Assembly (NCBI GenBank): GCA_026745465.1
Contig: JACYXH010000522.1
Coordinates: 3,098,866 to 3,162,865, forward strand
Reading direction: 5' to 3'
Source of the DNA: Lota lota
Lineage: Eukaryota > Chordata > Actinopteri > Gadiformes > Lotidae
Length of the DNA stretch: 64,000 bases
Shown here: positions 10,390-38,337 of the stretch, in pieces
How positions within the stretch are numbered: position 1 is the first letter of the stretch
Layout of the letters: the number at the start of each line of letters is the position of its first letter
Program-made: the position numbers and the translations under genes
The notes under the pieces: generated by a model
The model's input: only the letters and a program-made list of their open reading frames with translations
The model's database searches: none
What the model was told of the DNA's origin: nothing

Positions 10390-12739
10390 ATGGACTTCCT
10401 CCACGTGTTTTGGTTGGTGTTTCTCGCCGGGCTGAGAGGTATTTACCTGGAACTTTAAATCCGTTCACTTGCTTCAACGCTTCTTATTAATGTAACGTGA
10501 CTGGGCTTGTAAAACTGAACTGGAAGCTGCATCTCTATCGCTCTAACGTCTCGCTACAAGGCGATCTCGTCACACGACGGAACTTCTGGAACGGGATGCG
10601 CCAAATCAACGTTGTTGGCAAGAAAGAGGGCGGGACTTAGGATGAAGGGATATCCGTTACTTGTTTCGGATATTTTGTGAAATATTTCTTAGAGCTCCAT
10701 ATTTATTCTCGGTTGTTATCTTCATATGAGTCTTCTTCTGGCTCCGCGGACTGTTAACAGGCGTACACGGCTCATAGGAAGTAAGAGACCGGAAATTGAG
10801 CGCGATAGCAATATATAACGTAACAATTCTTGATCGTCTCTCAGCCTGGCATTTCTCTGTATTCAAACTGCACCCCAACCACATCCGTTACGAAAATCTA
10901 GCTGGTAGAACTGGCAGTGTTTTCTGTTCAAAATGCACAGTATGTTTGTTTGGCAATTAGTGTACATGGGTGTTAGTTTACATTGAAGTATTAAAATTGC
11001 ATTTTCTTAATAAAATAAACAAAGCGCTATTGAGGTTTATTGCTCACATTTGTATTCTTCAGTAGAATTTCTTAAGAAGTATAACCTAACAAACTTATTT
11101 GTTGTTTCTTGCTGTTGCATCAATGTATGTGTGGGCATTTTTTCCCCACATCAGTGCAAAAAAATAAATTGTGTTGTCAACTTTGGCCTACATGTATTTG
11201 TTAATATAAATCGCCCACTTAATTTTAAGTGCCCGAAGTAATACCAAGTTTTCGTATCAGTATCCACTAATGGGCTTCTAACTAGAACAATATGGACTTT
11301 TTATTACTAAAAGTGTGTGTGTCTGTGTGTGTCAGGACAGGGTCCGGCCTGCCACCCCGACCAGTGGGAATGTGACGACGGTAACTGTATCTCTGCAGAC
11401 TGGAGGTGTGACGCGGACGGGGACTGTCTCGATGGCTCGGATGAGACGGAGTGCCAAAGTATGAAGACTCTTCTGACCAGCCTTGTGCTGCTCAACTCTA
11501 AACCTGCTTTAAACTCTGCTGCTGCGCAACTCTGAACCTGCTCAAAACTCTTCAACTGGAGTTAAAACGTTACCCATATGTGTGTAGAAGGGTAGCCCTA
11601 CAGACCGAACTGATTAGCCAAGTTGGCCTGAGAAGCTGCTTCATGTGGTCTGCCGATGCAACACAATTATGACGGTGTATTTGGGGATGAATTAAGCACC
11701 TTGATGGCTTAAACTGGCGCAATGTTTAGGTTCTGAATGGCTTCGGGTACTCTCCCAAAGGGATTTCTATTCTACTGCTCTCTTCCTCATCCAGGGCCCG
11801 CCTCAAGCCCGTGTCCAGCGGGACAGTTTGCGTGTGTGGATTCTGTGGGGTGCGTGAACGAGTCGGGCCGATGCGACGGGGTGCGCCAATGCCCCACCGG
11901 CTCGGACGAGGAGGACTGTGGGACGAACCGCGGCTGCTTGGAGGCGGACTGGCTGTGTCACAACGCCATGTGTGTCCCAAGGGAGGCACGCTGTGACGGC
12001 AACGATGACTGTCTGGACCGCTCGGATGAGCTGGACTGTGGTGAGCCAAACACTAACTATTGGTGTACTTGTACCCCTTCAATTTACCAGGCAAGGCTCA
12101 TTGAGATATAAATCATTTTTCAAGAGAGACCAGACCAACAAACCAGCAAAATAAAAAAAAATCATCTGTCCTATAAGAGACTGGATGATAAACTCACTTG
12201 TGAGGTGTGTTGACCCTGGCCGAGGTGTTTTGACCCTGACTGGGGCTCAAGGTGTGTGAACCCTGACCGGGGCATGAGGTGTGTGGGTGTGAGGTGTGTT
12301 GACCCTGACCGGGGCTCAAGGTGTGTGAACCCTGAGCGGGGCTTGAGGTGGGTGTGAGGTGTGTTGACCCGGGGCGCAAGGTGTGTGAACCCTGACCGGG
12401 GCATGAGGTGTGTGTGGGTGTGAGATGTGAGGACCCTGACCGGGGCTCAAGGTGTGTGAACCCTGACCGGGGCTTGAGGTGTGTGGCCCCTGACGGGGCG
12501 TGAGGCGTCTTGACGTGGGTGAGGTATGTGTGGACCCTGACCATGGGGCGAGGTGTGTTGACCCAGGGCGTGAGGTGTGTGTACCCTGACGGGGCGTGGG
12601 GGTGATGGAAGGTGTTGTGTTGCAGGGCTGTGTGCGGAGGGCTGGTTGAAGTGTCCAGAGGGGGGCTGTGTGTCTCCAGCGCAGCGGTGTGATGGAAACC
12701 GCCACTGTTCAGACGGCAGCGATGAACCCCTGAGCTGCG
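10390..12739 (+). CDS. receptor exons 1-4: signal peptide and LDLa cluster I (4 repeats)
   Basis: Exons 10390-10438, 11336-11458, 11795-12040 and 12626-12739, all joined in phase 1. Exon 1 encodes a 17-residue hydrophobic signal peptide. Exon 2 encodes LDLa 1 ([18 protein letters not shown], then [11 protein letters not shown]). Exon 3 encodes LDLa 2 and 3 in one exon (CPAGQFAC..., CLEADWLC...). Exon 4 encodes LDLa 4 ([13 protein letters not shown]..., ending DGSDEPLSC). Each repeat has six cysteines and the acidic DGSDE calcium site, or DRSDE in LDLa 3. Intron 1 (about 0.9 kb) and intron 3 (with a minisatellite) contain nothing else that looks coding. Confidence 0.9.

Positions 12740-38337: not shown

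What the first reader, a model, noticed from the sequence alone, without database searches (positions are those of the whole stretch)
10390..38337. A 21-LDLa, four-propeller LDL-receptor relative with a layout unlike the common mammalian LRPs
The sequence shows 4 + 17 LDLa repeats and four propellers ahead of one membrane span, and all 41 exons join in one frame. LRP1, LRP2, LRP4, LDLR and VLDLR have other clusters. Fish lrp13 is known as an ovarian vitellogenin receptor; the identification here is inference. A propeller 2 that leads straight into LDLa repeats without an EGF is also atypical.
Basis: partly seen in the sequence, partly recalled or inferred. Interest (0 to 1): 0.72.

Follow-up and report, generated by a model that had tools for sequence, protein, structure and literature searches.

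The report
Two-unit fish lrp13-like lipoprotein receptor
The stretch holds what looks like one intact gene for a large cell-surface lipoprotein receptor that is a close cousin of the fish egg-yolk receptor Lrp13 but carries an extra front half with its own binding cluster, which matters because fish yolk receptors are described with one main binding cluster.

Summary
A 41-exon model (10390-38337, +) gives 2,420 aa in one frame: signal peptide, 4 LDLa, EGFs, two propellers, 17 LDLa, EGFs, two propellers, EGFs, one membrane span. Propeller 2 runs into LDLa without an EGF; propellers 2 and 4 are the weakly supported ones.

The identification is partly right. A separate gene on contig C479 fits published lrp13: 10+1 LDLa, between a Smad gene and rchy1. 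The window's C-terminal unit is its paralogue: 46.7% identity over 1,129 positions, 14 of 19 compared introns shared, both propellers paired at 99-100% support. It differs from published Lrp13 by an extra N-terminal unit, of which no second copy was found here, and by decay of the C-terminal "+1" LDLa. The 17-LDLa cluster grew by tandem duplication of a five-repeat module. Most likely an endocytic lipoprotein or vitellogenin receptor; ligand, tissue and uptake signal (no NPxY) are inferred. New variant of a known kind.

The parts
10390..10438 (+). exon 1, start codon and signal peptide ([16 protein letters not shown])
11336..12739 (+). exons 2-4: LDLa 1-4 (cluster I, aa 22-177)
12902..13426 (+). 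exons 5-6: EGF pair
13973..15538 (+). exons 7-10: propeller 1 (aa ~259-514)
   Evidence: alignment over its length to LRP2 1350-1737; Pfam class B 15.0 bits, below cut-off
16466..16585 (+). exon 11: single EGF; GC-AG donor
17330..18872 (+). exons 12-14: propeller 2 (aa ~554-803), very divergent, no EGF after it
   Evidence: ROS1 6e-7; no scored match outside the window covers aa 525-803
19099..19877 (+). exons 15-16: LDLa 5-7, module copy 1, types A-B-C
   Evidence: 83% DNA identity over 239 nt with copy 2
20126..21228 (+). exons 17-19: LDLa 8-12, module copy 2, types A-B-C-D-E
22084..23450 (+). exons 20-23: LDLa 13-17, module copy 3, types A-B-C-D-E (start of exon 20 uncertain: 22060 or 22084)
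23934..25204 (+). exons 24-26: LDLa 18-21 and start of the EGF pair
   Evidence: 52-66% identity to C479 repeats 7-10
25602..25785 (+). exon 27: rest of the EGF pair
26627..28348 (+). exons 28-31: propeller 3
   Evidence: 52% identity, 99/99 pairing with the first C479 propeller
28627..33995 (+). exons 32-37: EGF and propeller 4
   Evidence: 43% identity, 100/100 pairing with the second C479 propeller; no LRP2 alignment
36484..36648 (+). exon 38: EGF and stub of the C-terminal LDLa ([12 protein letters not shown], then a donor and an in-frame TAG)
37369..37627 (+). exon 39: stalk, last EGF, membrane span
37861..38337 (+). exons 40-41: cytoplasmic tail without NPxY, stop at 38335-38337

Best explanation
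One intact gene for a type I endocytic lipoprotein receptor: a paralogue of fish lrp13 (provisionally 'lrp13-like, two-unit'). It consists of an extra N-terminal unit (4 LDLa - EGF2 - propeller - EGF - propeller) in front of an lrp13 unit (17 LDLa - EGF2 - propeller - EGF - propeller - EGF - LDLa stub - EGF - TM - short tail). Shown here by sequence: gene structure, kinship to lrp13, tandem growth of cluster II, loss of the +1 LDLa. Inferred from the LDL-receptor family: Ca-caged acidic LDLa repeats hold lysines of a large lipid-transfer-protein ligand such as vitellogenin at the cell surface, two clusters allow multivalent binding of a large particle, the propellers displace it at endosomal pH, and the receptor recycles. 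Inferred and weaker: the cell is the growing oocyte, and uptake uses a signal other than NPxY.
For: 41-exon single-frame model. C479 is the best genome-wide relative of the C-terminal unit and is an lrp13 by layout and by rchy1 and Smad neighbours (PMC9935665 passages). 46.7% identity over 1,129 aligned positions; 14 of 19 compared introns at the same place (within one column) and phase. Pairing P3 with C479-Pa 99/99 and P4 with C479-Pb 100/100 in a 17-row tree. LDLa types shared repeat by repeat. Published Lrp13 binds vitellogenin in perch (PMC4651544 passages) and is ovary-dominant in eel (PMC9935665 abstract).
Against: No expression, ligand or protein data for this gene. No NPxY in the tail, although C479 lacks it too. 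Propellers 1 and 2 are on long branches (2.39 and 6.18) and unplaced, and tree rows were hand-picked, partly incomplete exon chains. Two weak acceptors. In the reverse search the highest-scoring single piece outside C479 is an LRP1/LRP2-type exon on C90 (89.7 bits, 31% identity), above any single window exon (75.5); that exon is long and undivided, and the window's eight pieces add up to more. An ovary transcriptome of swordfish had no lrp13 match (PMC6517582 passages), so lrp13 may not be an obligatory yolk receptor in all fish.
Confidence: 0.65

Rival explanations
1. It is an ordinary lrp13 orthologue, the Lrp13 of this species.
For: The C-terminal two thirds are lrp13-like in sequence, domain order and introns.
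Against: The same genome holds another gene with the published layout (10+1) and the published neighbours. The 20 kb upstream of the window hold FECH and NARS1 exons; a short-pattern scan for the CHY zinc finger found none there or in the window (a weak test). Extra N-terminal unit; +1 LDLa lost.
Confidence: 0.1
2. Two adjacent genes are joined by the model: a secreted 4-LDLa, two-propeller gene and an lrp13-like gene.
For: The C479 lrp13 begins with its own signal peptide directly before the LDLa cluster, so the C-terminal unit could stand alone.
Against: Exon 14 to exon 15 is phase-compatible with good sites (donor 9.5; acceptor 7.0) across a 226-base intron; no stop ends unit 1. Reading the ORF list I saw no signal-peptide exon before exon 15. 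I ran no promoter or polyadenylation scan there.
Confidence: 0.08
3. It is an lrp2 or lrp1 relative (megalin type).
For: LRP2 is the best PDB match for both halves; propeller 1's best match outside the window is on C90 (31%), an LRP1/LRP2-type locus.
Against: The PDB cannot discriminate here: the C479 lrp13 and an lrp1-type piece of C427 also match LRP2 best. LRP1/LRP2-type loci (C90, C427, C160) are separate genes in this genome. The supported propeller pairing is with lrp13.
Confidence: 0.04
4. A decaying or non-functional copy.
For: The +1 LDLa is a stub, no EGF follows propeller 2, propeller 2 is very divergent, two acceptors are weak.
Against: 2,420 codons without a stop and six cysteines in 21 of 21 LDLa. 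Splice-site types fit in 40 of 40 introns, but partly by construction.
Confidence: 0.08

Closest known systems
Teleost Lrp13 (Reading et al. 2014, not readable here, cited in PMC9935665); same-genome copy at C479:11903131-11913605
   Same: C-terminal unit: LDLa types C-D-E and 18-21, EGF2, propeller, EGF, propeller, EGF, stalk, EGF, TM, tail without NPxY, intron places (comparison is with C479; the number of propellers in published Lrp13 was not in the passages I saw)
   Different: Lrp13 has one main cluster of 7, 10 or 13 LDLa plus 1; the window gene has 4 + 17, an extra N-terminal unit, no intact +1 LDLa, other upstream neighbours (FECH, NARS1)
Second lrp13 copy of Takifugu rubripes (PMC11772764, section 5 and passages read)
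   Same: A second lrp13 gene on another chromosome is reported and attributed by the authors to the teleost genome duplication
   Different: The layout of that copy is not given in the text I saw; supplements could not be opened, so equivalence with the window gene is untested
Arthropod vitellogenin receptors (tick 4+8, insect 5+8 LDLa; PMC6537121 passages)
   Same: Two LDLa clusters, small first and large second, each followed by an EGF-precursor domain, one membrane span
   Different: Second cluster 8 vs 17; no sequence kinship was tested; likeness of layout only
LRP2 / megalin
   Same: Repeated units of LDLa cluster, EGF pair, propellers; best PDB match
   Different: Far larger (4,660-aa chains), more clusters and propellers, NPxY tail (last two recalled)
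LRP4
   Same: Four propellers, one membrane span (LRP4 recalled)
   Different: LRP4 has one LDLa cluster and no second cluster between propellers 2 and 3 (recalled); the own-genome copy is probably C659 (named by layout)

Membership tests
LDL-receptor superfamily | LDLa clusters, EGF, YWTD propellers, single TM | tested here: met
   (propellers 2 and 4 weak)
Teleost Lrp13 | sequence kinship to lrp13 | tested here: met
   against the C479 gene only; no named Lrp13 sequence was available
Teleost Lrp13 | single N-terminal cluster of 7-13 LDLa (PMC9935665) | tested here: not met
   4 + 17 LDLa in two clusters
Teleost Lrp13 | unique C-terminal '+1' LDLa (PMC9935665) | tested here: not met
   stub [12 protein letters not shown] only; intact in C479
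Teleost Lrp13 | rchy1 as neighbour (PMC9935665) | tested here: inconclusive
   short CHY/RING patterns found nothing in the 64-kb window or 20 kb upstream and did find rchy1 beside C479; the profile search PF05495 did not complete
Teleost Lrp13 | ovary-dominant expression | not testable with these tools
   no RNA data
Teleost Lrp13 | vitellogenin binding | not testable with these tools
   needs a binding assay
LRP2 | LRP2 layout and NPxY tail (recalled) | tested here: not met
   two clusters, four propellers, no NPxY
LRP4 | one LDLa cluster then four propellers (recalled) | tested here: not met
   second cluster of 17 between propellers 2 and 3
LRP1 | LRP1 clusters and NPxY tail (recalled) | tested here: not met
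   lrp1-type loci C427 and C160 are separate (naming by eye)
Arthropod vitellogenin receptor | two clusters, 4-5 then 8 LDLa | tested here: not met
   4 then 17; same order of domains, different second count (PMC6537121)
Arthropod vitellogenin receptor | sequence kinship closer than to vertebrate LRPs | not tested
   no arthropod sequences were fetched

The most novel reading that the evidence does not exclude
The window gene keeps an ancestral two-unit, two-binding-cluster receptor layout, shared in outline with arthropod vitellogenin receptors. The single-unit Lrp13 studied so far is a derivative that lost the first unit, so vertebrates did not lose the second ligand-binding domain of yolk receptors as PMC6537121 suggests.
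Probability: 0.25. Interest if true: 0.65.

Novelty: new variant of a known kind. Interest (0 to 1): 0.45.

Why it matters
Vertebrate yolk receptors are described as single-cluster proteins (PMC6537121 passages). A second lrp13 with two binding clusters (4 and 17 LDLa) would add a further candidate yolk receptor in fish and a direct test of how vitellogenin subtypes are sorted between receptors. The repeat analysis also suggests a simple rule for the published Lrp13 counts 7, 10 and 13: four fixed repeats plus one, two or three copies of a three-repeat block. In C479 (10) the blocks are directly visible; for the other species this is inference from counts alone.

Tried and rejected
LRP2, LRP1, LRP4, LDLR and VLDLR identity: rejected by layout and by the same-genome comparison. 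PDB best hit LRP2: not diagnostic, because the C479 lrp13 and an lrp1-type piece give the same answer. Claudin at 49 kb as a marker of a duplicated region: no close second copy, uninformative. Possible alternative 3' end at 43.8-44.8 kb (EGF + TM): rejected because its start is phase 0 while exon 38 ends in phase 1. PARM1 as name for the mucin-like ORF upstream: a guess from memory, no Pfam hit, dropped. Structure prediction: not run, because spliced proteins are not given letter for letter by the DNA as that tool requires. Origin of the N-terminal unit by tree: failed, long branches; rows were hand-picked, and other propellers of C90, C427, C160 and all of C593, C308 and C109 were left out. 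Paper search for lrp13a/lrp13b/lrp13-like: 2 papers hold a term, 1 was listed, on insects, not opened.

Full report
Observation. Of the 50 chained exons 28 were kept as they were, 12 had boundaries moved, 10 were dropped and 1 was added. The result is 41 exons from 10390 to 38337 on the + strand, 2,420 aa, no internal stop, 38 GT-AG and 2 GC-AG introns. The order is: signal peptide; LDLa 1-4 (aa 22-177); EGF pair; propeller 1; EGF; propeller 2; LDLa 5-21 (aa 809-1533); EGF pair; propeller 3; EGF; propeller 4; EGF with an LDLa stub; stalk; EGF; membrane span (around aa 2338-2356); a tail of 64 residues with no NPxY. Pfam finds LDLa with E 1.9e-155 in 20 separate stretches, EGF-type families and class B repeats. 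Tested singly, only propeller 3 passes the class B cut-off; 1 and 4 fall short and 2 gives no class B match. Propellers 1 and 3 align over their whole length to LRP2 chains; the LRP2 alignments listed skip propeller 4. Propeller 2 alone finds 23 PDB sequences at E<=1, 18 of them YWTD-propeller proteins, led by ROS1 at 6e-7. I accept four propellers, with 2 and 4 the weaker claims. The missing EGF after propeller 2 is real in the model.

What it is. The window lies in an unnamed 575-Mb assembly at C522:3098866-3162865. I infer a teleost from the lrp13 neighbourhood described below; no tool named the species. With the C-terminal 802 aa as query, the best locus outside the window is C479:11907371-11911728, 37-54% identity in seven pieces through propellers 3 and 4 and the last EGF. 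I fetched it and built its gene: 21 exons, 1,352 aa, signal peptide, 10 LDLa, EGF pair, propeller, EGF, propeller, EGF, one more LDLa, stalk, EGF, membrane span, tail without NPxY. This fits the published Lrp13 description: 7-13 N-terminal LDLa plus a unique C-terminal one, for example 7+1 in perch, bass, croaker and eel, 10+1 in amberjack, 13+1 in cutthroat trout (PMC9935665, passages). The neighbours agree: an rchy1 exon 3' of it (PDB match to RCHY1 3e-15) and a Smad exon 5' of it (PDB match to R-Smad MH1 domains such as SMAD3; SMAD2 rather than SMAD3 is by eye). The eel paper names rchy1 as the constant neighbour and lists smad2 in its figure legend.

Window gene against C479. Identity is 46.7% (527 of 1,129 aligned positions) from LDLa15 to the tail, and 14 of 19 window introns there fall on the same column (one is off by one) and phase. 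Two are absent in C479, where three exons are fused, and the last three keep the phase order but lie in poorly aligned stalk and tail. In a tree of 17 hand-picked propellers from this genome, window P3 pairs with the first C479 propeller (99/99, 52% identity) and P4 with the second (100/100, 43%). The third supported branch joins two lrp1-type rows; P1 and P2 are long and unplaced. The reverse genome search with C479 propellers and EGFs finds the window gene in eight pieces at 38-54% identity. No other scored locus matches throughout, though one long undivided exon on C90 scores higher than any single window exon (89.7 vs 75.5 bits, at 31% identity). C90 is LRP1/LRP2-type: its piece matches LRP2 end to end, but so does a piece of C427, which I take for lrp1 by eye, so the PDB does not separate the two. 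The window gene is therefore a paralogue of lrp13.

What differs. First, no second copy of the N-terminal unit (aa 1-803) was found. Of 60 pieces listed (56 of 355 first-look candidates scored) the best outside the window is on C90 (31% over aa 187-364), and none outside the window covers aa 525-803. Second, cluster II is a tandem array: repeats 5-7, 8-12 and 13-17 are copies of a five-repeat module A-B-C-D-E (first copy A-B-C only). Repeats 7, 10 and 15 are 72-75% identical, 12 and 17 69%, 6 and 9 64%, 11 and 16 62%, 8 and 13 58%, with 83% DNA identity over 239 nt between copies 1 and 2. The C479 repeats r1-r6 correspond to C-D-E twice, and r7, r8 and r10 to 18, 19 and 21; r9 scores 57% to repeat 17 and 52% to repeat 20, so its match to 20 rests on order and on equal exon size (130 nt). 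This suggests that published counts 7, 10 and 13 are four fixed repeats plus one to three C-D-E blocks; shown here for C479 only, inferred elsewhere. Third, the +1 LDLa is intact in C479 but in the window stops after [12 protein letters not shown], where a donor precedes an in-frame TAG. Fourth, the 20 kb upstream of the window hold NARS1 and FECH exons, not rchy1 as far as a short-pattern scan can tell.

Origin. PMC11772764 (section 5 and passages) reports two lrp13 copies on different chromosomes in T. rubripes and attributes them to the teleost genome duplication. The window and C479 genes may be that pair. I could not see the layout of the fugu copies, and a test marker (claudin) was uninformative. 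Human SMAD2, FECH and NARS1 all lie on 18q21 (recalled), which fits. Whether the first unit is ancestral and lost in lrp13, or gained in the window gene, is open.

How it works. By family knowledge, LDLa repeats bind basic residues of large lipid-transfer proteins through calcium-caged acidic pockets, and propellers release the ligand in endosomes. In perch VtgAa binds mainly Lrp13 and VtgAb LR8 (PMC4651544, passages); lrp13 is ovary-dominant in eel (PMC9935665 abstract); a swordfish ovary transcriptome showed no lrp13 (PMC6517582, passages). I take the window gene to be a similar endocytic receptor with two binding sites. The tail has no NPxY, nor has C479, whereas a VLDLR-type gene about 430 kb upstream on the same contig has FDNPVY (L003; eight LDLa and one propeller). 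The uptake signal of the lrp13 group is thus not the usual one. An EKETLM stretch fits a loose acidic dileucine pattern, which is no evidence of use.

Comparison and novelty. [quoted passage not shown] The window gene has that order of domains, 4+17. This is likeness of layout; kinship was not tested. Paper searches were seen as listings (30 of 178 papers, mostly on the unrelated LRP130); passages of six papers were read. In these I saw no two-unit lrp13 and only the fugu statement of a second copy. Most subscription papers, the original Lrp13 paper among them, and supplements could not be read. Verdict: real, intact by sequence, lrp13 paralogue, new variant of a known kind.

Noticed in passing
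43837-44037 and 44625-~44790 (+): Two exons coding one EGF (CX4CX5CX12CXCX8C) followed by a membrane span, with good splice sites but no LDLa or propeller motif nearby; start phase 0, so not an alternative end of the receptor gene. No Pfam hit for the ORFs.
   Followed up: partly
8234-9100 and 7522-7779 (-): Ser/Thr-rich mucin-like ORF of 289 aa over 24/48/96-base tandem units, and a possible membrane span in a second ORF; no Pfam hit for the first.
   Followed up: no
49073-49885 (-): Apparently intronless claudin-family gene (PF00822) with a long C-terminal tail; best-scoring other match in the genome 30% identity.
   Followed up: partly
57563-58800 (-): Single-exon beta-1,3-glycosyltransferase-type gene (PF01762, E 2.5e-36).
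   Followed up: no
25794-26276, 29487-29788, 34360-34782: Three minisatellites of 30-32 bases, 16, 10 and 13 copies, in introns of the receptor gene; the second begins about 20 bases inside exon 33.
   Followed up: no
intron donors after 16585 and 31000: Two GC-AG introns in the receptor gene (gcaagt, gcaagg).
   Followed up: yes
41511-42369 (-): Open frames resembling a hAT-type transposase (by eye; one of them, 42013-42369, gave no Pfam hit).
   Followed up: no
C479 lrp13 (concatenated L026-L023-L024-L025, 26221-26770): One 550-base exon replaces three exons of the window gene (33-35): two introns lost in lrp13 or gained in the window gene.
   Followed up: partly
L001-L003 (C522:2.667-2.682 Mb): A VLDLR-type gene (8 LDLa, one propeller, FDNPVY tail; named by layout) lies about 430 kb upstream of the window gene on the same contig.
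   Followed up: partly
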